Shown here in pieces: positions 29,920 through 38,514 of a DNA stretch of 38,514 bases. A program made the position numbers and the translations under genes. The stretch covers positions 3,661 through 42,174 of the forward strand of contig JAPLDR010000097.1 in NCBI GenBank assembly GCA_026391655.1, in the 5' to 3' direction. The stretch's first letter is position 1; every line of letters begins with the position of its first letter. This stretch comes from Bacteroidia bacterium. GTDB taxonomy: Bacteria; Bacteroidota; Bacteroidia; Bacteroidales; Prolixibacteraceae. Below the pieces are notes generated by a model. That model saw only the letters and a list, made by a program, of their open reading frames with translations, ran no database searches and had not been told where the DNA came from.

Positions 29920-30666
29920 ATGAAAAAAATCGCAATTATTGGAGGATCAGGACTTGAGAATCCTGAAATTCTGCAACATGCAGAACATATCACGTTAAAA
30001 ACACCTTATGGCGATCCAAGTTCTGATTTTATTTGCGGAACAATCGGCCAGGTGGAAGTAGCCATTTTATCCCGACATGGGCGTGATCATACGATTCCGC
30101 CTATGCAAGTCAATAACAGGGCCAATCTGCATGCGATTAAACAATTGGAATGCACCCATATTCTTGCAACAACAGCATGTGGAAGTCTTCGCGAAAATAT
30201 TGGCCGGGGAGATCTTGTTATTCCGGATCAGTTTATCGATTTTACACGGCACCGCGAAATAACATTCTTCAAGGAGTTTGAGCCCCATGTAATGAAGCAC
30301 ACACCAATGGCAGATCCGTTTGATAGTTATCTCAGGGAAAAACTCATAACAGCTGGTCGTGAACTTAAATTTAAGATTCATCCAAACGGGTGCATCCTTA
30401 CCATTGAAGGACCACGATTCTCGACGCGTGCAGAATCGCGGATGTTCCGTATCTGGGGTGGCGATATGATTAATATGAGTACTGCGCCCGAGTGTATGCT
30501 CGCCAAAGAGCTTGGAATACCTTATGCAGCAATAGCCATGGCCACCGACTACGACAGCTGGAAAGATGATGAAAAGCCCGTTTCATGGGAGGAGATTATT
30601 AAAGTATTTGGTCAGAATGTTCACAATGTGATTAATATTCTGCTAAAAGTGATTCCTGCTGTTTAA
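29920..30666 (+). CDS. mtnP: S-methyl-5'-thioadenosine phosphorylase
   Basis: Splits 5'-methylthioadenosine into adenine and methylthioribose-1-phosphate, the substrate for MtnA. 248 residues from the ATG at 29920; an upstream TTG in frame lies just past the repeat and would add unrelated residues. Motifs: IAIIGGSGLEN, LSRHGRDHTIPP, ATTACGSLRENIGRGDLVIPDQFIDFT, ILTIEGPRFSTRAESRMFR, MINMSTAPECMLAKELGI and ATDYDSW, whose two Asp residues are those that recognise adenine in the human enzyme. The full set supports methylthioadenosine over inosine derivatives. Confidence 0.93.
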   Translation: MKKIAIIGGSGLENPEILQHAEHITLKTPYGDPSSDFICGTIGQVEVAILSRHGRDHTIPPMQVNNRANLHAIKQLECTHILATTACGSLRENIGRGDLVIPDQFIDFTRHREITFFKEFEPHVMKHTPMADPFDSYLREKLITAGRELKFKIHPNGCILTIEGPRFSTRAESRMFRIWGGDMINMSTAPECMLAKELGIPYAAIAMATDYDSWKDDEKPVSWEEIIKVFGQNVHNVINILLKVIPAV

Positions 30667-30738
30667 TTTTCAAAAAGATTTGCAGGATACGGTACAATTG
30701 ACTAAAATTGCACACCGAAATTCAAATAAGAATTTTGA

Positions 30739-30812
30739 GGGCCTATAGCTCAGTTGGTTAGAGCATCTGACTCATAATCAGGGGGTCGCAGGATCATGCC
30801 CTGCTGGGCCCA
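30739..30812 (+). tRNA. tRNA with CAT anticodon (Met or lysidine-type Ile2)
   Basis: Acceptor stem GGGCCTA pairs with TGGGCCC (one T-G wobble), D-arm GCTCAGTTGGTTAGAGC, anticodon loop CTCATAA, T-stem GCAGG/CCTGC, discriminator A, no full CCA. The acceptor and D-arm resemble tRNA-Ile(GAT), so an Ile2 tRNA modified by TilS is quite possible; sequence alone does not decide. The T-loop is ATCATGC where TTCRANY is the rule: positions 54 and 58 read A and T instead of T and A. Confidence 0.88.
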
Positions 30813-30822
30813 CCCTAATATC

Positions 30823-30860
30823 AAACACTTACACATTAATTTGTGTAGGTGTTTTTTTTT
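30823..30860 (+). terminator. Terminator after tRNA(CAT)
   Basis: ACACTTACACA (30825-30835) pairs with TGTGTAGGTGT (30842-30852) around a 6-nt loop and is followed by nine T residues. Confidence 0.8.
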
Positions 30861-30973
30861 CACACCTTGGTTTAAATATGGTTTAACCCTATTTCAAACA
30901 GTTACTTATATTCTGCAAAGAACTTGTCGCATTTTGGTTGCTTGTGCAGTCCTAAAATTAACTGCTATTTTAT

Positions 30974-31221
30974 AAATCCCCCTTGTATTCCCCCTTTTTC
31001 TAAGGGGGAAAACGTTCACAATTAGTCTGATATCCAAAGAAATTTAATTGTTAAAACATTAATATTTAGAACAATAAACTTTCCTTCACGAACTCCCCCT
31101 TTCGCGAAATATCCATGAGTTTCTAGACATATTTATTTAATTAATCAAGCTTCATGGATATTCTATCTGGCCTTTAAAAAATAAAAGTATTCAGATAAAA
31201 GGGGGAACACAAGGGGGATTT
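30974..31221. mobile_element. MITE-like palindromic element with 25-bp terminal inverted repeats
   Basis: The ends 30974-30998 and 31197-31221 are inverted copies with 24 of 25 matching bases; each carries two CCCCC (or GGGGG) blocks. Inside, ATATCCATGA (31109-31118) and TCATGGATAT (31152-31161) form a second, nested pair. The element is 248 bp, has no coding frame and shows no evident target duplication. It lies in the 938-bp gene-free stretch 30667-31603, which otherwise holds only the tRNA, its terminator and a REP-type repeat. Confidence 0.65.
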
Positions 31222-31431
31222 GCCGTTGGTGTAAGCAATCAAATTTGATGCTGAAAAATCCTAAACCAGATCCCCCTCGTTTGCAACGAGGGGTTGGTTG
31301 TTTTGAGTTTTCAACTCACCGGCAAATTGTTGTTAGATTATTTCTATCCTTTTTGTTCCCGTAAAATCAATTTGATGTATTTATCGTTACAAACGACTGA
31401 CCACTATCCCCTCGTTACAAACGAGGGGGAG
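31219..31431. repeat. REP-type repeat, copy A
   Basis: A 213-bp unit containing the hairpin CCCCTCGTT-TGC-AACGAGGGG, then a conserved spacer (TTTTCAACTCACC through ATCAATTTGATGTATTTATCG) and a second CCTCGTTACAAACGAGG palindrome. A second copy in the same direction is at 32951-33144. The layout of two hairpins around a spacer is REPIN-like; no transposase is in the window. Confidence 0.8.
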
Positions 31432-31603
31432 CAATAGTCATTCCAACAAAAATGGATTGAATATAGGGTTGAACACACCAGACAATCTATGCCTGAAATG
31501 TGTGAATTATTAAACTTATTTCTAAAATTTTGTAACACTTATCGTTATAAAGTCAATCACCTTTGCAGGGCAAGTATCAATCACAATTTTAAATAAAAAC
31601 GAA

Positions 31604-31789
31604 ATGGCTAAATATTCAAAAAAAGCTCAGGAAAAAATTGAAGAGGTCATGCATGAATTTAAGCATGGAGAATTAAAATCAGGCAAAGATGGCAAAGGTG
31701 GAGTTGTAAAAAGCCGTGAACAGGCCATAGCCATAGGTATAAGCGAAGCGCGACATGCAGGGCTAAAAGTTCCTAAGGAAAATTCTTAA
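31604..31789 (+). CDS. Small DUF6496-like basic protein
   Basis: A 61-residue Lys/Gly/Glu-rich protein. The C-terminal half, VKSREQAIAIGISEARHAGLKVP, is the recognisable part of the DUF6496 family, in which a short SR/TK-E-Q-A-I-A-I-G-L/I-S-x-A-R block recurs. It is preceded by an AT-rich leader. Such proteins are often stress-related or found in accessory regions, but no function is established. It lies between two direct REP-type repeats. Confidence 0.75.
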   Translation: MAKYSKKAQEKIEEVMHEFKHGELKSGKDGKGGVVKSREQAIAIGISEARHAGLKVPKENS

Positions 31790-31798
31790 TCAGAATTC

Positions 31799-32110
31799 TT
31801 AACTTATCCAGTGGTCTGAAGTCTGGGGATTAATATATGGGAAAATTGATTGTAAGTGCAATTTAATAATTCTAAACTGGCTGTCATAGGATAGTAACTT
31901 CTTATTTATCAGTGATTGTAAAGCTTCATATATTTGTTTCTGATTGTATTTCCTCATGACGTAACTCTTACAGAAATCTTTAAAAGAAAAAATGGAAGGC
32001 GATGTAAGAATAGCATCAAAAAGTTCAGATTCAAGATCTGTAACATCATTTAAATGGAAAAGCTTATCAACTGAAACGGTGTCTTGTGGTAGTGAATTTA
32101 TATTTTCCAT
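31799..32110 (-). CDS. Hypothetical protein, small and helical
   Basis: Not recognised. 103 residues, mostly helical, with no signal peptide or membrane segment. SPSIFSFKDFCKSYVMRKYNQKQIYEALQSLINKKLLSYDSQFRIIKL resembles a winged-helix layout (helix, helix, short hairpin) and could bind DNA. Its 3' end is nine bases from the convergent DUF6496 gene. It is probably real because of its length in a gene-poor stretch and sensible composition, but support is weak. Confidence 0.45.
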   Translation of the reverse strand: MENINSLPQDTVSVDKLFHLNDVTDLESELFDAILTSPSIFSFKDFCKSYVMRKYNQKQIYEALQSLINKKLLSYDSQFRIIKLHLQSIFPYINPQTSDHWIS

Positions 32111-32406
32111 ATTCTTAAAGATTTAAATAAAACTATTTGGGTGCAATATAGGCTCTGTATTGTGAAAATTTCTCTAATAAAGAGTAAAGATCATTAATAT
32201 GCCCGTTTCTTATGATCATAGATGGTTATTATTAATTCTATTGTTAAAAAAATCAAGGAGTCACATTCAAAGATGCAACTCATGATAGCGCCATTTTTCA
32301 GTGGTTTTTTATTGGAATTTAATGCAGGGATAAAAAGTTTGTTTTTATGTTTTAAATGACTTCCTTTGAAACAGGAAAAATAAAATGATCAGATAATACA
32401 TCCCTT

Positions 32407-32940
32407 ATGAGAATAACCTTATTTGCAATACTCTTTCTATTTACCAGTCATTTAAGTTTTTCGCAAGACAGCATCTTTGTGTTGCATCCTTTTGTCGGAG
32501 ATACAATCGACAAATTTGAAAAGACTAAATTTCTGTTGTTTCCCGAAATTAACGATTCAAGTTTTTGTTACGGACAAATCCATTACTCAGATAAAAAATA
32601 CCTGTTGTATTCATATGCTGAGAATAACACTACTCCCCCAATTGAAGAAATCGATTCATTGACCATTAAAGAATACAACAGGAATATTCAAAAATTACTT
32701 GATTATTATACTGCTTTAATGAAAACCGATACAATCCATAAACCATTTAATGCGAATATGCAGAACGATTTGAATGTAAATCTAAACATCAGTCCCGAAT
32801 TGCGTAAGAAGTTAACCAATGAAATGTTCAGGTATCAATTTCTAAAATGGCATGCAGAACAACAAGGATTACAGGGAAAAGAGCAGGAGGATTATATAAA
32901 AACTTCAGGCTTTTTGACGATTCCTGTAAAACAAAAATAG
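32407..32940 (+). CDS. Secreted hypothetical protein
   Basis: Not recognised. 177 residues with a clean signal peptide (ITLFAILFLFTSHLSFSQ, cleavage before D-S-I). The mature protein is polar, with a beta-rich first half and a helical second half (NISPELRKKLTNEMFRYQFLKWHAEQQGLQGKEQEDYI). No catalytic motif is visible. It ends ten bases before the second REP-type repeat. The 296-bp gap before it (32111-32406) is AT-rich and shows nothing definite. Confidence 0.6.
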   Translation: MRITLFAILFLFTSHLSFSQDSIFVLHPFVGDTIDKFEKTKFLLFPEINDSSFCYGQIHYSDKKYLLYSYAENNTTPPIEEIDSLTIKEYNRNIQKLLDYYTALMKTDTIHKPFNANMQNDLNVNLNISPELRKKLTNEMFRYQFLKWHAEQQGLQGKEQEDYIKTSGFLTIPVKQK

Positions 32941-32950
32941 CAGAAGTGAC

Positions 32951-33144
32951 TTTGCTGTTGGTTTGGCCATTCAAATTTGATATTGAAAAACCTTAAACCA
33001 TATTTTCCAGATCCCCCTCGTTTGCAACGAGGGGTTTTTTGTTTTTAGTTTTCAACTCACCGTCAAATTGTTGTTAGATTATTTCTATCCTTTTTGTTCC
33101 CGTAAAATCAATTTGATGTATTTATCGTTACAAACAGAGGGGGA
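32951..33144. repeat. REP-type repeat, copy B
   Basis: Direct copy of 31219-31431, almost identical over the hairpin and the spacer. It lacks about 29 bp between two CGTTACAAAC units near the right end, as if lost by slippage, and has an extra TATTTTCC before the hairpin. Confidence 0.8.
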
Positions 33145-33153
33145 AATTAAAAA

Positions 33154-33681
33154 CTAGAACAAACTTAAGTTTGAAATACGAATTGTCATAGCGATTACAC
33201 TTACATCAAACATTTTCGCCAATTGTTTAACAACAACTTCATCTGTCAAATCTAGGAAGTGATTTTGTATTTGTTCAATAAGCAATTTCCTAGGCATAAG
33301 AATTGATGCAGCAAATGCATTTGCTTCTTGCTCTCTTTTGTTTTCGCCTGTAGCAGATTTTTGATCTCTGAAAAGAACTTTATATTCTTTGTCAATAAAA
33401 ATTGAGTCACTGGAATTTTTATGCAATAAGAAATGTCCCAATTCATGCGCCATAGTAAATCTCTGCCTTACAGATGGTTCTTTTGGATTTATGCCAATAA
33501 AGCCTTGATCTTGATTAATTACTAAAACACCAGAGATATTATCTCCTAAATCATAAGTGTGAATTTTTATTCCAAGCCGTTCAGCAATCTTTTTTATTGG
33601 AATAGGTAACTCATTCGAATTAAACTCCGTGAGAATTTGGGAAGTAATGTCTTCAATTTTTTTACGATTCATTTTTGACAT
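33154..33681 (-). CDS. ImmA/IrrE-family metallopeptidase
   Basis: A 175-residue zinc protease of the ImmA/IrrE (COG2856) family. The zinc motif is MAHELGHFLLH (His79, Glu80, His83), and the downstream block KREQEANAFAASILMPRKLL carries the third ligand Glu. Members cleave or inactivate a partner XRE repressor in response to DNA damage or other signals. The start overlaps the XRE gene by 13 bp, the classic repressor-protease operon. It may switch genes of the neighbouring accessory cluster. Confidence 0.9.
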   Translation of the reverse strand: MSKMNRKKIEDITSQILTEFNSNELPIPIKKIAERLGIKIHTYDLGDNISGVLVINQDQGFIGINPKEPSVRQRFTMAHELGHFLLHKNSSDSIFIDKEYKVLFRDQKSATGENKREQEANAFAASILMPRKLLIEQIQNHFLDLTDEVVVKQLAKMFDVSVIAMTIRISNLSLF

Positions 33682-34019
33682 TCTGAAGTAATTTCAATAA
33701 GAAAATCCTTTAATTTTTTTGTATCATTTGAATCACCCTTTGCGGCAATTTCAATTCTTTTTTGCCACATTGCTAGCAATTCGTCGCCTTTTTGTATAAC
33801 AGGAAGTATGTCAGTAATGTTCACTTCTGTTTTCTTACAAATATCATAAATCAAATGTATAGTAGCACGTTGTCTACCCTGCTCAATATTTGCAATTGAG
33901 GCCCTTGTAAGATTGAGTGACCGTGCAAATGACTCTTGATTCATACCCTTAGCCTGTCTGATTTCTTTTATTTTCAGACCAATGGCAATATAAAGTGCGT
34001 ATTTTTCTTGCTGTGTCAT
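33669..34019 (-). CDS. XRE-family transcriptional regulator
   Basis: A 116-residue DNA-binding protein. The N-terminal helix-turn-helix IGLKIKEIRQAKGMNQESFARSLNLTRASIANIEQGRQRATIHLIYDICKKTEVNI is typical. The ATG at 34019 is preferred over one at 34076 because the promoter boxes (34035-34066) lie between them and would be inside the longer frame. The partner ImmA-like protease is translated from an overlapping frame. Autoregulation through the palindrome at 34061-34075 is inferred. Confidence 0.9.
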   Translation of the reverse strand: MTQQEKYALYIAIGLKIKEIRQAKGMNQESFARSLNLTRASIANIEQGRQRATIHLIYDICKKTEVNITDILPVIQKGDELLAMWQKRIEIAAKGDSNDTKKLKDFLIEITSECQK

Positions 34020-34034
34020 ATACTTTTTGCGATT

Positions 34035-34075
34035 CAAAGATAATACAATGCATTGAATAATGCAAATAGTTTGCA
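34035..34075 (-). promoter_or_regulatory. XRE promoter with overlapping operator
   Basis: On the minus strand TATCTTTG (34035-34042) and TTTG (34063-34066) form a -7/-33 pair at 20-bp spacing. A perfect inverted repeat TGCAAA-TAG-TTTGCA (34061-34075) covers the -33 box, and a further ATGCAT lies at 34049-34054. This is what an autoregulated repressor site would look like. Confidence 0.65.
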
Positions 34076-34127
34076 ATAATACACATATTTATTTTTTTTG
34101 TGGTATTGTACATTCGAAAATTATTAT

Positions 34128-34135
34128 TATATTTG
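34128..34135 (+). promoter_or_regulatory. -7 promoter box for the 57-residue protein gene
   Basis: TATATTTG fits TAnnTTTG and lies 35 bp before the ATG at 34170. It is about 50 bp from the XRE operator and divergent, so the XRE protein might affect both directions. Confidence 0.45.
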
Positions 34136-34169
34136 CGAATTATATTTTGAACATTTAAATTTTTTGAAG

Positions 34170-34343
34170 ATGGCAACAAATAAGCCGTATGGTGACAATC
34201 ACCGAATTGGCGCTGTGAAAGACAGAAGCCAAGTGTACAATGGGAAAATTGAGAAGTTTGTTAAAAGAGATCCAGAAACTGGCAAGTTTCTGGATGTAAA
34301 ATCTGATGGTAAACCTTTCAAGGGAGTTCGTAAGGAAAAATAA
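34170..34343 (+). CDS. Small basic conserved-looking protein of unknown function
   Basis: A 57-residue protein starting MATNKPYGDNHRIGAV and containing RSQVYN, KRDPETGKFLDVKSDGKPFKGVRKE. The upstream in-frame ATG at 34098 is rejected because the -7 box would then lie inside the frame. The pattern (N-K-P-Y-G-D, G-A-V-K-x-R-S-Q, R-D-x-x-T-G-K-F) looks like a family I have met in Bacteroidota and others without a known role. It is highly basic and could bind nucleic acid. It is followed by a terminator and then the ubiquitin-like operon. Confidence 0.65.
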   Translation: MATNKPYGDNHRIGAVKDRSQVYNGKIEKFVKRDPETGKFLDVKSDGKPFKGVRKEK

Positions 34344-34345
34344 AA

Positions 34346-34378
34346 CCAGATTGTTGAACAACCTGGCTTTAGTTTTTT
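34346..34378 (+). terminator. Imperfect terminator after the 57-residue protein gene
   Basis: CCAGATTG (34346-34353) pairs with CAACCTGG (34359-34366) with one mismatch around a short loop and is followed by CTTTAGTTTTTT. It suggests that the ubiquitin-like operon is transcribed from its own promoter in 34380-34600, where no clear boxes were found. Confidence 0.55.
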
Positions 34379-34604
34379 AAAAGTATCAAGGTTAGCATCC
34401 TTGACAATGTTTTTTTCTTGGTTGGAACAAACATACTACTTTTCAAAGACATACACAAGCCTCTGTTGTCCATTCCTTCTGGAAGTATTAATTTTTAACA
34501 TTTTTTAACGCTAGTAAGAAAAGCAGTTAGTATTGCTACGTACAATCATTTGAGGTTTTGTATTTTTTAATAATGTGTTTTTTTAACCTTTAAAAGTAGT
34601 AAAT

Positions 34605-35534
34605 ATGAAATTATTTGTTCATTTAAATAATTCTCTGCAGTTTAAAACAGCGGAGATAAATGAGGACCAAAAAGTTGGTCATTTAGTAAAGGAGTTCGTT
34701 CCCGGAATGGCACACAATCAGGATGATCTTGAAGATGTTGAAGTTTATCTTGAAAACCAGGATGATGATTTCGATAAGGGAATATCAATCCTTGAGGCTG
34801 GGATTAAGCATGGCGATCATATTTTCGTCGGAAGATGCAAGAAGATCTCTGTCAATATAAACTATGCAGGGAAAAGCTTTGCAACGAATGTTGGACCTGC
34901 AACAAGTGCTAAAAAGCTCAAAAAGCTTTCACTTAATTATTTCGGCATTGATGATGTAAGTGGCGCAGAATTATTGCTCTGGTTTAATAAAGAGCCTTTA
35001 GATCAACGTCAACTTATTGGATCTTTAACTGATTATCCTTCCTGTGGTGTCAATTTAGTCCTTGCAGCTAAAGAAGATGTTAATGGAGATTTGTCCCATG
35101 ATTTATTTCAGGATCACCTTAGTTCTCCAGAATATCAATCTGGAGAAATCGAAGGTCGATGGGGAACTATTAGTAATGAAAACAGGCCTTCATGGCCTGT
35201 TTTCTTTTTTTGGGTAATCTCATCAACAAATGAAAAATTCAATTTTAAGTTTGATCTTACAGGTTATCCTAATGCTGCCCCAACCGGAGTATTATGGGAT
35301 ATCGAAAACAATAAGGTTTTAGAACAAAGTAAAAGACCTTTAAAAACAAAAAGACAATCTCAGGTATTTAAGGTTTGGGGTAAAGAATGTAATTATTTGC
35401 CATGCGACAGATTAGCATTTGATCCTGGACATGCTGTTGGCTGGACTGTTCAGCATGCAGGTTTAATCTGGAATCCTCAAACAGACACATTTTTTAAGTA
35501 TTTAAATGAAATTTACCAAATTCTAAACCCTTAA
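34605..35534 (+). CDS. Fusion protein: two ubiquitin-like domains plus an E2-like domain
   Basis: A 309-residue cytoplasmic protein. Residues 1-79 and 81-155 read as two beta-grasp ubiquitin-like domains (MKLFVHLNNSLQFKTAEI.. ILEAGIKHGDHIFVGR; then ISVNINYAGKSFATNV.. CGVNLVLAAKE). Residues about 165-309 resemble a bacterial E2/UBC-like domain: FNFKFDLTGYPNAAPTG, the presumed catalytic Cys267 in YLPCDRLAF, a His/Trp block, and IWNPQTDTFFKYLNEIYQIL as the C-terminal helix. No diglycine is present between the Ubl and E2 parts; DVNG (to Gly161) is the only plausible processing point. It is the first gene of a tight operon with JAMM and E1-like genes. Domain calls are by motif, moderately sure. 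Confidence 0.7.
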   Translation: MKLFVHLNNSLQFKTAEINEDQKVGHLVKEFVPGMAHNQDDLEDVEVYLENQDDDFDKGISILEAGIKHGDHIFVGRCKKISVNINYAGKSFATNVGPATSAKKLKKLSLNYFGIDDVSGAELLLWFNKEPLDQRQLIGSLTDYPSCGVNLVLAAKEDVNGDLSHDLFQDHLSSPEYQSGEIEGRWGTISNENRPSWPVFFFWVISSTNEKFNFKFDLTGYPNAAPTGVLWDIENNKVLEQSKRPLKTKRQSQVFKVWGKECNYLPCDRLAFDPGHAVGWTVQHAGLIWNPQTDTFFKYLNEIYQILNP

Positions 35535-35537
35535 GAA

Positions 35538-35999
35538 ATGCAATCAATTTCAATATCAATTGGCCTTTGGTTCAAATTAATGAAGGGTCTAAGGCGAAGA
35601 GGAGCAGGTTTCACGGAAAGTGGAGGTTTTCTTTTGTGTAATCCCGGGAAAAGTAAGGTTGTCAAGATTGTTTTCTATGATCAGTTTGATAAAACGGTAT
35701 CAGAATCTGGTATAATACAGTTTAAAGGAGCTGCATCTTTCTTTGAATATTTGGCAGAAGAAAAACTTGAAGTCTTGGCTGATATCCATACCCATCCGAC
35801 TAGGAACACTCAACAAAGTGATTCTGATAAGAAACATCCAATGATCAGAACAAGAGGACATATTGCCATAATTGCACCAAATTTTGCCAAGAATTTCCTT
35901 CTTTCTCCTAAACAGTGTTCAGTATATGAATACTTAGGTCATTTTGACTGGAGGAAATTTGAAATTTCAAAGTTCCCAATACATTTAAAACTGATTTAA
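35538..35999 (+). CDS. JAMM/MPN-domain deubiquitinase-like metalloprotease
   Basis: A 153-residue single-domain zinc protease. The JAMM signature is complete: Glu27 in FTESGGFLL, His84 and His86 in DIHTHP, Ser94 and Asp97 spaced as H-x-H-x7-S-x2-D. Bacterial relatives in ubiquitin-like operons process the Ubl precursor and remove it from targets. The ATG follows the previous stop by three bases and its own stop is one base before the E1 start. A role in freeing the Ubl from the Ubl-E2 fusion is inferred. Confidence 0.88.
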   Translation: MQSISISIGLWFKLMKGLRRRGAGFTESGGFLLCNPGKSKVVKIVFYDQFDKTVSESGIIQFKGAASFFEYLAEEKLEVLADIHTHPTRNTQQSDSDKKHPMIRTRGHIAIIAPNFAKNFLLSPKQCSVYEYLGHFDWRKFEISKFPIHLKLI

Positions 36000-36000
36000 A

Positions 36001-37338
36001 ATGGAAATAAAGCATACAAATAGAGTTGCCTTTGCAATAGCCGAGAAATATGATATTGACATTGAAGAAGCGATCAACAAAATGAACGATACTTCGATAT
36101 GGATAATGGCAGACGAATCAATCACAAATTCATATTCAAAGCAAGTAGCATTTTTAACAGCCGTAAACATCGCTCACCGGGTATTTCTTGGTGGAGTTAA
36201 TTGTCTGTTACCTGCCAATACTCCAAATCTGTTAAAACTTGAATCGCAGTATTTCAATGATTTAGTTTCTCAAAATGGTGGTATCATTACTGACAAAAAT
36301 CCAAGCCGTCAAGCAATAAAAATTCTTATTGGAATTGTATGTTATGATGATCAATGCATTGAATCTGCTTCTTCTGGTTGGAGAGGAGGAGTTAATTTTA
36401 ATAATCAAGATAGAGTAGTGTTTCCAGATTCTAATAACAAAATTTCATTAGGTCCAATTGCCTCAGCATCACTTGCCTGTTACTATGCATTTTGTAAAGC
36501 ATATCAGCTAAATAGTGATGGAATTGATTTGACTATTGGCATTTCGCTTTGGAATCTTAACGCAGCCAAGGAATGGTTTAATGATGAAAATGATGGTCCT
36601 AACAATGTGTACTTACCGAGAAATATTTGGACACTTGGCTTAGGGCATTTAGGTCAGGCATATCTCTGGACTTTAGGATTAATGCCATTTAATATCCCAA
36701 ATGAAACCCTATTTCTTCTACAAGATGCAGATATTGTTGAACCAGAAAATATTGGTTCACAGGTTCTATGTTCTGAACAAAACATTGGAAGACCAAAAAC
36801 AAGGGCATGCATGATTTTTTTGGAAAATCTAAATTTCAAAACTCAAATTGTAGAAAAGCCATTCATTTGGGGTGATTCGGAGCAAGATTGGATGAAAATC
36901 TATCCATTTCTTTTGAATGGAGTTGATAATATAAAAACCCGGAAAAGTATTAATAAAGATTCTTTAAAGCTGTTTCTGGATGGAGCGACGAATGGAAAAT
37001 TTGATTTGTTTGATAGTTTCACAATGAAGAATATTTCAAACATTGAAAAAAATATCAGTATGATTTGGCCGAAAGAGGAAGAAAATGACGTAATATTTCT
37101 CAAAAATCTATACCAGAAATATGAGAAGACACATCTATGTGGAAAATTAGCCAATATTGGAATATCTACTCCCTTTGTCGGCTTATTTGGCTCAACTATA
37201 ATTATTTCTGAATTGCTACGATCTCTGAATCAAGGTATAAGATATTCCATTGTTACTTTTCAACTGAGAGACTTGAGCTCAATGGAAGCAATTGAATGTG
37301 GAGTTTACAACAAAGAATTGTTGCGATTTGCAGTATAA
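36001..37338 (+). CDS. E1/ThiF-like Ubl-activating enzyme
   Basis: A 445-residue protein whose second half is an E1-like adenylating domain: nucleotide-binding loop TLGLGHLGQAYLWTLG (Gly213, Gly215, Gly218), LLQDADIVEPENIGSQ (Asp242, Asp244, Asn250), IGRPKTRA with the conserved Lys, and LLNGVDNIKTRK with the conserved Asp. The usual Arg of N-x-x-R-Q is Ser here. A candidate thioester Cys is Cys380 in THLCGKLANIG. The first 205 residues are an N-terminal domain of the kind seen in bacterial E1-like proteins, with SSGWRGGVNF, not identified further. It closes the operon; one base separates it from the JAMM gene. Confidence 0.82.
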   Translation: MEIKHTNRVAFAIAEKYDIDIEEAINKMNDTSIWIMADESITNSYSKQVAFLTAVNIAHRVFLGGVNCLLPANTPNLLKLESQYFNDLVSQNGGIITDKNPSRQAIKILIGIVCYDDQCIESASSGWRGGVNFNNQDRVVFPDSNNKISLGPIASASLACYYAFCKAYQLNSDGIDLTIGISLWNLNAAKEWFNDENDGPNNVYLPRNIWTLGLGHLGQAYLWTLGLMPFNIPNETLFLLQDADIVEPENIGSQVLCSEQNIGRPKTRACMIFLENLNFKTQIVEKPFIWGDSEQDWMKIYPFLLNGVDNIKTRKSINKDSLKLFLDGATNGKFDLFDSFTMKNISNIEKNISMIWPKEEENDVIFLKNLYQKYEKTHLCGKLANIGISTPFVGLFGSTIIISELLRSLNQGIRYSIVTFQLRDLSSMEAIECGVYNKELLRFAV

Positions 37339-37442
37339 GAGTCAATGTTATTGGTTTATCCTCTCGATTGTAATACGGGTTAAGTTGTCGGTCGTTTGTA
37401 ACTATAAACCTAAAATCATAAAATAAACATTTATCGGGTATT

Positions 37443-37471
37443 GTAGAGACAAGGCATTGCCTTGTCTCTAC
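37443..37471. repeat. REP hairpin downstream of the ubiquitin-like operon
   Basis: GTAGAGACAAGGCA and TGCCTTGTCTCTAC are perfect 14-bp complements with one central base. Such hairpins are common dispersed repeats in Bacteroidota; here it may also end the operon transcript. Confidence 0.75.
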
Positions 37472-37567
37472 GGGGGTCTTTCTTCGAATATATTCCTAAT
37501 CGTCAACCCGTTTACCCTTTGTTAATCTTTAATAAACGTATGTCATCCAAAACCCAATAACCGCAAC

Positions 37568-37752
37568 CTTACCAGTCGTGAAACGCAGGTTCTGCGTTGG
37601 TCGTAAAAGGGAAAACAAACACCATTATAGCGAAAGTATTGTTTATCAGTGTCGCGACGGCAAAGAAACATCGGACCAACCTGATTCAAAAAACAGGTGC
37701 GAAAAATTCTGCCGAACTGGCTGCACTGGCCATTGAAAGCGGGGAGTTTTGA
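37568..37752 (+). pseudogene. Remnant of a LuxR-type (GerE) helix-turn-helix gene
   Basis: The first frame gives LTSRETQVLRWS, a TAA stop, then KGKQT; a shift of frame then gives IAKVLFISVATAKKHRTNL followed by IQKTGAKNSAELAALAIES and a stop at 37750-37752. Together this is the LuxR DNA-binding domain (L-T-x-R-E-x-x-V-L, I-A-x-x-L-F-I-S-x-x-T-x-K-x-H-R-x-N-L). One stop and at least one frameshift break it, and no receiver domain lies upstream. Confidence 0.75.
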
Positions 37753-37754
37753 AA

Positions 37755-37862
37755 AATTAGACAATGTGACAATTAGACAATGTGACAATTAGACAATGTG
37801 ACAATTAGACAATTAGACAATGTGACAATGAGACAATGTGACAATGAGACAATGAGACAATT
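37755..37862. repeat. Short tandem repeats of GTGACAAT/TAGACAAT units
   Basis: About 13 imperfect 8-bp units of the types TGTGACAA, TTAGACAA and TGAGACAA lie head to tail. They fade into GTGCTAAT-like units up to about 37900. No coding meaning. Confidence 0.75.
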
Positions 37863-37949
37863 CGGTAATGTGCTAATATGCTAATGGGTTAATTTGCTAA
37901 TGGAAATGGAATCAATGTTTTGTGAGAACCCAGGAAGGGTGAAATATTT

Positions 37950-38176
37950 GTAGCCCGGGGTAAGAGAACGGAGTGAACGCAACCCCGGGTAAATGATGAA
38001 AAAAAGGAATCGGCGCAACCACAAAGAAGAATTGAAATGGAGACCTTCTTTGCGCCGAGAGATCGAAACCCCTAAATGAACATTCGACAAATTGCGGATA
38101 TCATTACGCATTTCATTTCTTGATTCACCCTGGTTTTGCGGCGCAAAGAACTTTTTTTCTCTGTTTTATATTTCCG
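37950..38176. repeat. 227-bp direct repeat, copy 1
   Basis: Begins GTAGCCCGGGG and holds two hairpins: CCCGGGG...CCCCGGG over about 35 bp, and GGCGCAA...TTGCGCC over about 45 bp. The rest is a spacer ending in TTTATATTTCCG. The second copy starts 338 bp later. No coding frame is conserved between the copies. Confidence 0.85.
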
Positions 38177-38287
38177 GTTGCGCCTCTTGTTGTTTATTGC
38201 CATTTTTCTACCCACATTTTGCTCCTCCGGAGCATTTGATTCAACTAATATAAAAATTGGAATCGAATCTATGTTTTGAGATTATGG

Positions 38288-38514
38288 GTAGCCCGGGGTA
38301 AGAGAACGGAGTGAACGCAACCCCGGGTTGAATGATAAAAAAAGAGACCGGCGCAACCATAAAAGAGAATTGAATTGGAGACCTTCTTTGCGCCGAAAGA
38401 TCGAAACCCCTAAATGAACATTCGACAAATTGCGGATATCATTACGCATTTCATTTCTTGATTCACCCTGGTTTTGCGGCGCAAAGAACTTTTTTTCTCT
38501 GTTTTATATTTCCG
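38288..38514. repeat. 227-bp direct repeat, copy 2 (reaches the window end)
   Basis: Nearly identical to 37950-38176, with a few changes clustered in the first 100 bases; the last 125 bases look identical. It stops at the window edge, so its true end and any further copies are unknown. Between the copies is a small GCTCC/GGAGC palindrome (38221-38233). Confidence 0.85.

What the first reader, a model, noticed from the sequence alone, without database searches (positions are those of the whole stretch)
34605..37338. Three-gene ubiquitin-like conjugation operon with Ubl, E2-like, JAMM and E1-like parts
Seen: three genes separated by 3 and 1 bases encode a double beta-grasp plus E2-like protein, a protein with a complete JAMM signature, and an E1/ThiF-like enzyme. 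Known: bacterial Bil-type systems use the order Ubl, E2, deubiquitinase, E1 and defend against phages by modifying virion proteins. Inferred: this is a compact relative in an accessory region with an XRE/ImmA pair and repeats next to it, so an antiphage role is likely.
Basis: partly seen in the sequence, partly recalled or inferred. Interest (0 to 1): 0.88.

Follow-up and report, generated by a model that had tools for sequence, protein, structure and literature searches.

The report
Bacterial ubiquitin-like defence operon with fusion
This is a bacterial ubiquitin-like (Bil) defence operon in which the tag protein and its carrier enzyme are made as one joined protein that probably has to be cut at a conserved glycine before the system can tag anything.

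Summary
Three genes at 34605-37338 lie 3 and 1 bases apart. PADLOC models identify all four parts of the Bil (bacterial ISG15-like) system: BilA fused in frame to BilB (34605-35534), BilC (35538-35999) and BilD (36001-37338). So this is a Bil system, with a modifier-E2 fusion. The intact fusion was found in three genomes of one bacterial family; in the 23 other Bil loci read here BilA ends at its own stop codon. BilA's terminal glycine is kept at the join (Gly161|Asp162) and is invariant in the 21 BilA rows aligned; 7 of 23 unfused BilA carry tails of 2-8 residues after it. No second BilA or BilB was found in the three fused draft genomes. Best explanation: BilC cuts the precursor after Gly161, releasing modifier and E2 one to one; BilD and BilB then attach BilA to targets, by analogy phage tail parts. 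Cleavage, conjugation and defence are inferred, not shown. A divergent CapH/CapP-like pair probably controls expression. Known kind, new architecture; nothing I saw in library searches describes it, but four key papers looked up were not held.

The parts
34605..35534 (+). bilAB: one ORF of 309 aa, double ubiquitin-like modifier (BilA) fused to E2-like enzyme (BilB)
   Evidence: PADLOC BilA 1-161 and BilB 164-308; same fused ORF in L004 and L005
34605..35087 (+). BilA part, residues 1-161, two ubiquitin-like domains, ends in ...EDVNG
35085..35090 (+). predicted cut site Gly161|Asp162; Gly161 aligns with the C-terminal glycine of unfused BilA
   Evidence: invariant in 21 of 21 aligned BilA rows; 23 of 23 unfused BilA end in it (16) or carry a 2-8 aa tail after it (7)
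35088..35531 (+). BilB part, residues 162-309, E2-like (Pfam DUF7665), candidate catalytic Cys267 at 35403-35405, His276 invariant in 20 of 20 rows
   Evidence: fold matches to chains of 8TZ0/8TYZ at low confidence
35178..35211 (+). intragenic terminator-like hairpin (11 pairs, 5-base loop) followed by seven T, inside the BilB part
   Evidence: present in all three fused ORFs
35538..35999 (+). bilC: JAMM peptidase with E27, H84, H86, S94, D97
   Evidence: PADLOC BilC 4.8e-44; PDB 8tyx_B DUB(BilC) 0.0036; conserved site
36001..37338 (+). bilD: E1-like enzyme, GxGxxG 213-218, D242, K266, D309, R314, candidate catalytic Cys380 (37138-37140)
   Evidence: PADLOC BilD 3.6e-86; invariant columns in 17 rows; profile finds 8tyz_A E1(BilD) 2.2e-4
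37441..37473 (+). terminator-like hairpin of 15 pairs after bilD
33154..33681 (-). capP-like ImmA/IrrE (M78) peptidase
   Evidence: PADLOC capP 1.1e-36; Pfam Peptidase_M78 1.8e-25
33669..34019 (-). capH-like HTH repressor (ATG start by eye; 34076 with a TTG start)
   Evidence: PADLOC capH 1e-8; a generic HTH_VI model scores better, 5.1e-11
34170..34343 (+). 57-aa PADLOC candidate defence protein PDC-S38, between the regulators and bilAB; a terminator-like hairpin at 34341-34371 is listed on the - strand and by eye has a T run on the + strand too, so it may be a separate transcript
   Evidence: next to bilAB in 3 of 3 fused loci

Best explanation
A Bil (bacterial ISG15-like) modifier system whose modifier and E2 are made as one precursor. 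BilC, the JAMM peptidase encoded 3 bases downstream, cuts after Gly161. That frees mature BilA with a C-terminal glycine and a 148-aa BilB in one-to-one amounts. BilD adenylates the glycine and carries BilA on Cys380; BilB takes it over on Cys267 and attaches it to target proteins; BilC can also remove it. By analogy with the Collimonas Bil system the targets are phage tail parts, so progeny phage are defective. The divergent CapH/CapP-like pair probably keeps expression low until single-stranded DNA from damage or infection activates the protease. Shown here: family identity of all parts, the fusion, conservation of Gly161 and of the catalytic residues, no second copies found in the three draft genomes. 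Inferred: cutting, conjugation, target, defence and regulation.
For: All four Bil profiles hit in order. Gly161 is one of three invariant columns in 21 BilA rows and is the last residue (16) or is followed by a short tail (7) in 23 of 23 unfused BilA; those 7 need trimming anyway, which a review says BilC does (PMC11354881, passages). The three genomes with the fusion have one BilA and one BilB match each at E <= 0.1, the fusion itself, so without a cut no known modifier with a free glycine exists. L005 has no in-frame ATG/GTG/TTG between codons 154 and 238, so a usual internal start cannot supply BilB there. JAMM, E1 and E2 catalytic residues are kept. Both halves are under purifying selection. 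The E2 model's best matches are chains of the bacterial E1-E2-Ubl complex. CapP-like and CapH-like neighbours; PMC13373217 (passages) describes CapH+CapP next to Bub operons and CapK+CapS next to Bil.
Against: No experiment. The structure of the full fusion could not be predicted; the E2 model is weak (pLDDT 59, best E 0.03) and the listing does not name the matched chains' subunit; sequence profiles found no E2 of known structure beyond E about 1. The fused rows are one lineage (two rows), so conservation of VNG|D among them alone says little. The window and L004 have a TTG codon where unfused BilB starts, so some free BilB could come from an internal start. The four-residue CEHH motif described for a solved Bil E2 is not present in full. 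No BilD relative was found in 50,697 phage records. Host defence cannot be tested here, and second copies could hide in gaps of draft genomes.
Confidence: 0.75

Rival explanations
1. BilAB stays uncut and works as an E2 with a permanently attached modifier-like cofactor (or as an inactive scaffold); another protein is the modifier.
For: Iyer et al. 2006 (PMC1779556, passages) report polyUbl proteins fused to an E2-like domain in another operon type (row 6e), where the E2 is inactive.
Against: Cys267 is kept here, the terminal glycine is kept at the join, the BilC site is intact, and no other BilA was found in the three draft genomes.
Confidence: 0.1
2. BilB is also made separately by an internal start at codon 163 (TTG), so the fusion is only partly a precursor.
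For: TTG at codon 163 in the window and L004 lies where unfused BilB begins (the register was judged by eye).
Against: L005 has TTA there and no ATG, GTG or TTG in frame until codon 239; the modifier would still need cutting.
Confidence: 0.12
3. The operon is a stress or housekeeping modifier system rather than an anti-phage one.
For: PMC13373217 (passages) says the related Bub operons have not been shown to protect against phage; CapH/CapP-type control answers DNA damage in general.
Against: Bil of Collimonas blocks phage by tagging the central tail fibre (as told in PMC11364771, passages); patchy occurrence, 3 intact of 140 genomes of the family, fits defence.
Confidence: 0.2
4. The locus is a decaying, non-functional remnant.
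For: A relative, G1130, has only the end of BilB, an open bilC and a broken bilD.
Against: All three ORFs are intact here, with dN/dS 0.1-0.2.
Confidence: 0.04

Closest known systems
Bil (BilABCD, bacterial ISG15-like) anti-phage system
   Same: All four parts by profile, same order, E1, E2 and JAMM residues, BilA terminal glycine
   Different: BilA and BilB are one polypeptide; three genes instead of four; BilD of the fused lineage on a long branch next to Bil of the same class
Solved bacterial E1-E2-Ubl complex 8TYZ/8TZ0 and BilC 8TYX
   Same: E1 and DUB relatives by sequence; best fold matches of the E2 model are chains of 8TZ0/8TYZ
   Different: Distant (E1 profile E 2.2e-4; E2 part not found by sequence); CEHH motif given for a solved Bil E2 in PMC11354881 not present in full
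Iyer 2006 row 6e operons (polyUbl, sometimes fused to an inactive E2/RWD-like domain; JAB-E1)
   Same: A tandem Ubl protein joined to a UBC-like domain
   Different: There the E2-like domain lacks its cysteine and JAB is mostly joined to E1 (passages); here Cys267 is kept and JAMM is separate
Eukaryotic ubiquitin precursors (polyubiquitin, ubiquitin-ribosomal protein fusions; recalled)
   Same: Modifier made with a C-terminal extension and released by a peptidase after glycine
   Different: The extension here is the E2 of the same pathway and the presumed peptidase is in the same operon
Bub (bacterial ubiquitination-like) operons
   Same: Related bacterial ubiquitination-like pathway with CapH/CapP-type neighbours (passages)
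   Different: Not compared by sequence here; primary papers not held

Membership tests
Bil system | BilA: two ubiquitin-like domains ending in glycine | tested here: met
   PADLOC BilA 4.1e-24 over 1-161; Gly161 invariant; two-domain ubiquitin chains found by profile. The glycine is internal until cut
Bil system | BilB: E2-like enzyme with catalytic cysteine | tested here: met
   PADLOC BilB 1.6e-34; Cys in 14 of 20 rows at Cys267, window included; fold support only at low confidence
Bil system | BilC: JAMM peptidase, E ... HxH ... SxxD | tested here: met
Bil system | BilD: E1-like with adenylation site and cysteine | tested here: met
Bil system | four separate genes A-B-C-D | tested here: not met
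   A and B fused; order kept. Treated as a variant because every part is present
Bil system | covalent tagging of phage proteins and protection | not testable with these tools
   none
Bil E2 with CEHH motif | Cys138, Glu144, His146, His151 as given in PMC11354881 (passages) | tested here: not met
   Cys267 and an invariant His276 (+9) present; +6 is Asp273 and +13 is Trp280
Iyer 6e polyUbl-inactive E2 fusion | E2-like domain without cysteine, JAB usually fused to E1 | tested here: not met
   Cys267 present; bilC and bilD separate
CapH/CapP regulator pair | HTH repressor plus ImmA/IrrE peptidase, divergent from the defence operon | tested here: met
   capP 1.1e-36 is the best hit; capH 1e-8 but generic HTH_VI 5.1e-11; orientation. 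Cleavage of one by the other not testable

The most novel reading that the evidence does not exclude
BilAB is a zymogen-like polyprotein: neither modifier nor E2 works until the operon's own deubiquitinase cuts it, so BilC is the on-switch as well as the eraser, and the conserved hairpin plus T-run inside the gene tunes how much E2, BilC and BilD is made relative to BilA.
Probability: 0.25. Interest if true: 0.68.

Novelty: new variant of a known kind. Interest (0 to 1): 0.5.

Why it matters
It is a natural modifier-E2 fusion in a bacterial ubiquitin-like system. If BilC proves to mature it, the fusion gives a one-gene, one-to-one supply of tag and carrier, makes the deubiquitinase essential for activation rather than only for removal, and offers a simple co-expression assay of BilC specificity (cut or no cut after Gly161). 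It also shows a distinct Bil architecture in Bacteroidota.

Tried and rejected
Sequencing or assembly error as the cause of the fusion: rejected, same 309-aa ORF in three genomes. Full-length structure prediction of BilAB from three sequences: useless (pLDDT 32). E2 relatives in the PDB by sequence: none for the fused protein or the 18-row BilB profile at E <= 1, one chance-like hit at E <= 10; a 7-row set of unfused BilB gave E 0.7-1.5 hits, six or seven of the eight being UBC9 entries. BilD relatives among phage records: none; the operon's DNA matched one phage record, in the PDC-S38 gene only. Viral contigs: none with the window's BilD alone; with alignments two Bil loci, both unfused. These draws overlap. 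RNA families in 30600-38514: only the tRNA. Integration at the tRNA-Met (30739-30814) was considered from position alone; no duplicated tRNA end was searched for. Papers: two Bil papers and two Bub-related papers looked up are not held, so absence of a BilA-BilB fusion in print is only as good as the listings of searches and the passages read.

Rows dropped before counts: L023 (B. cepacia plasmid, BilD match only, no BilA/B/C match), L003, and duplicate views of the same loci (L001, L026, L027, L030, L032, L033, L038-L040, L044-L049, L058-L060). Of 35 plasmid records with a BilD match, regions of 19 were fetched; 16 were not read. Among the 23 loci counted as unfused the test was that BilA ends at its own stop; in L021 no BilB match was seen at all and in L012 only part of one.

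Full report
WHAT IS THERE. Three genes on the + strand at 34605-35534, 35538-35999 and 36001-37338, 3 and 1 bases apart. PADLOC models give BilA (residues 1-161, E 4.1e-24) and BilB (164-308, 1.6e-34) within the first ORF, BilC (4.8e-44) for the second and BilD (3.6e-86) for the third. Pfam agrees more weakly: DUF7665 for the E2 part, Prok-JAB below its cut-off, ThiF above it.

THE FUSION. The first ORF joins modifier and E2 in frame. The same 309-aa ORF occurs in L004 (same genus, 90% identity) and L005 (same family, another genus, 79%) (kinship, matched by contig coordinates). In the family search 3 of 140 genomes have it intact; a fourth match (G1130) has only the end of BilB, followed by an open bilC and a broken bilD. 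In 23 other Bil loci, including three from the same class (L002, L028, L029), BilA ends at its own stop codon. A BilD tree of 21 rows puts the two fused rows available (L004 ends inside bilC) together on a long branch (2.17), grouped with the three same-class rows (100/99 support), so one fusion event is enough.

WHY A PRECURSOR. In 21 aligned BilA rows (3 fused, 18 unfused) only Leu125, Leu153 and Gly161 are invariant. The glycine is the last residue of 16 of 23 unfused BilA; the other 7 have tails of 2-8 residues after it. A review states that BilC acts on BilA to expose the glycine (PMC11354881, passages). In the fusion, BilB follows the glycine with no linker. Each fused genome has one BilA match and one BilB match at E <= 0.1, both the fusion (these are draft genomes, the own one 96% complete). 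An E1 adenylates a free C-terminal glycine (established mechanism), so either the fusion is cut or the system cannot conjugate this modifier. Internal starts cannot replace the cut for BilA; for BilB a TTG at codon 163 exists in the window and L004, but L005 has no ATG, GTG or TTG in frame between codons 154 and 238.

CATALYTIC PARTS. BilC keeps E27, H84, H86, S94 and D97, invariant in 19 rows, and matches the solved BilC 8TYX (E 0.0036). BilD keeps GxGxxG, D242, K266, D309, R314 and Cys380 in 17 of 17 aligned rows; a profile finds E1(BilD) 8TYZ at 2.2e-4. BilB keeps Cys267 in the PCDR motif, and His276, which is invariant in 20 of 20 rows; 6 of the 20 rows, all unfused, lack the cysteine. The E2 model (pLDDT 59, pTM 0.58) has 8tz0_D, 8tz0_C and 8tyz_C as best PDB matches (Foldseek probability 0.97, 0.90, 0.84; E 0.03-0.15). 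Both entries are titled bacterial E1-E2-Ubl complex; the listing does not say which subunit the chains are. Entries with UbcH7 and Ube2W appear lower, with probabilities of 0.14 and 0.16. The full fusion was not predictable. dN/dS between the window and L004 or L005 is 0.21 and 0.11 for bilAB, 0.11 and 0.15 for bilC, and 0.10 for bilD (L005 only, dS 2.0 and so saturated).

CONTROL. Divergently upstream lie a capP-like peptidase (33154-33681) and a capH-like HTH gene (33669-34019); for the latter a generic HTH model scores better than capH. L004 has the same pair; L005 has a different CapH/CapP-like pair at the same place. PMC13373217 (passages) describes CapH+CapP as a switch in which single-stranded DNA activates the CapP protease, and reports 219 of 544 Bub operons with CapW or CapH+CapP.

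FUNCTION. A Bil system of Collimonas attaches its modifier to the phage central tail fibre (as told in PMC11364771, passages). By homology the same is expected here; nothing was tested. No BilD relative was found in phage records; two viral contigs carry unfused relatives.

AN UNEXPLAINED FEATURE. Inside the BilB part, 35178-35204 forms an 11-pair hairpin followed by seven T. It is present in all three fused ORFs, with one A-U to G-U change and changes in the loop; 49 of 2000 synonymous shuffles of the ORF have such a site somewhere, and 0 of 8 degenerate conserved codons in it change, against 97 of 221 in the whole ORF (permutation 0.009, region chosen after seeing it). It may be an attenuator, or a side effect of the FFF codons.

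VERDICT. A known kind of system with a new architecture and a sharp, easily tested prediction. Score 0.5.

Noticed in passing
window 35178-35211: Terminator-like hairpin plus T7 inside the coding region of bilAB, conserved in all three fused loci with no synonymous change in 8 codons; function unknown.
   Followed up: partly
window 34170-34343; L042:4189-4359: PDC-S38, a 57-aa conserved protein, lies beside bilAB in all three fused loci and in L042 lies just upstream of a Multi_ubiq, DUF6791-ThiF, DUF6527 operon with an ImmA-type peptidase nearby, so it accompanies two different ubiquitin-like systems. It was found in 4 of 198 order genomes, the own one included. In L041 and L043 a neighbour looks like a GIY-YIG gene (by eye, name recalled).
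   Followed up: partly
window 34259-34343: 85 bases of the PDC-S38 gene match a hypothetical gene of Staphylococcus phage phiSP119-3 at 76.5% identity.
   Followed up: no
L009, L010, L011, L017, L022, L024: Six of 20 aligned BilB sequences lack the cysteine of the PCDR motif although their BilA glycine and BilD cysteine are kept; how they pass on the modifier is open.
   Followed up: no
window 35538-35999: BilC of the fused lineage has F68, F69, L72 and S128, where 18 of 22 rows have L, W, C and G respectively; could be drift or adaptation to the fused substrate.
   Followed up: no
window 31266-31394 and 33007-33135: 129-base direct repeat (97%) flanking three small ORFs; 26 full or partial matches across the genome.
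   Followed up: partly
window 37755-37861 and 37945-38514: 8-base tandem array (13.4 copies) and a 232-base repeat in two copies, 93% alike, after the operon.
   Followed up: no
L063: G1130 holds a decayed Bil locus: end of BilB only, open bilC at 82% identity, bilD matching in two separate frames with a stretch missing.
   Followed up: partly
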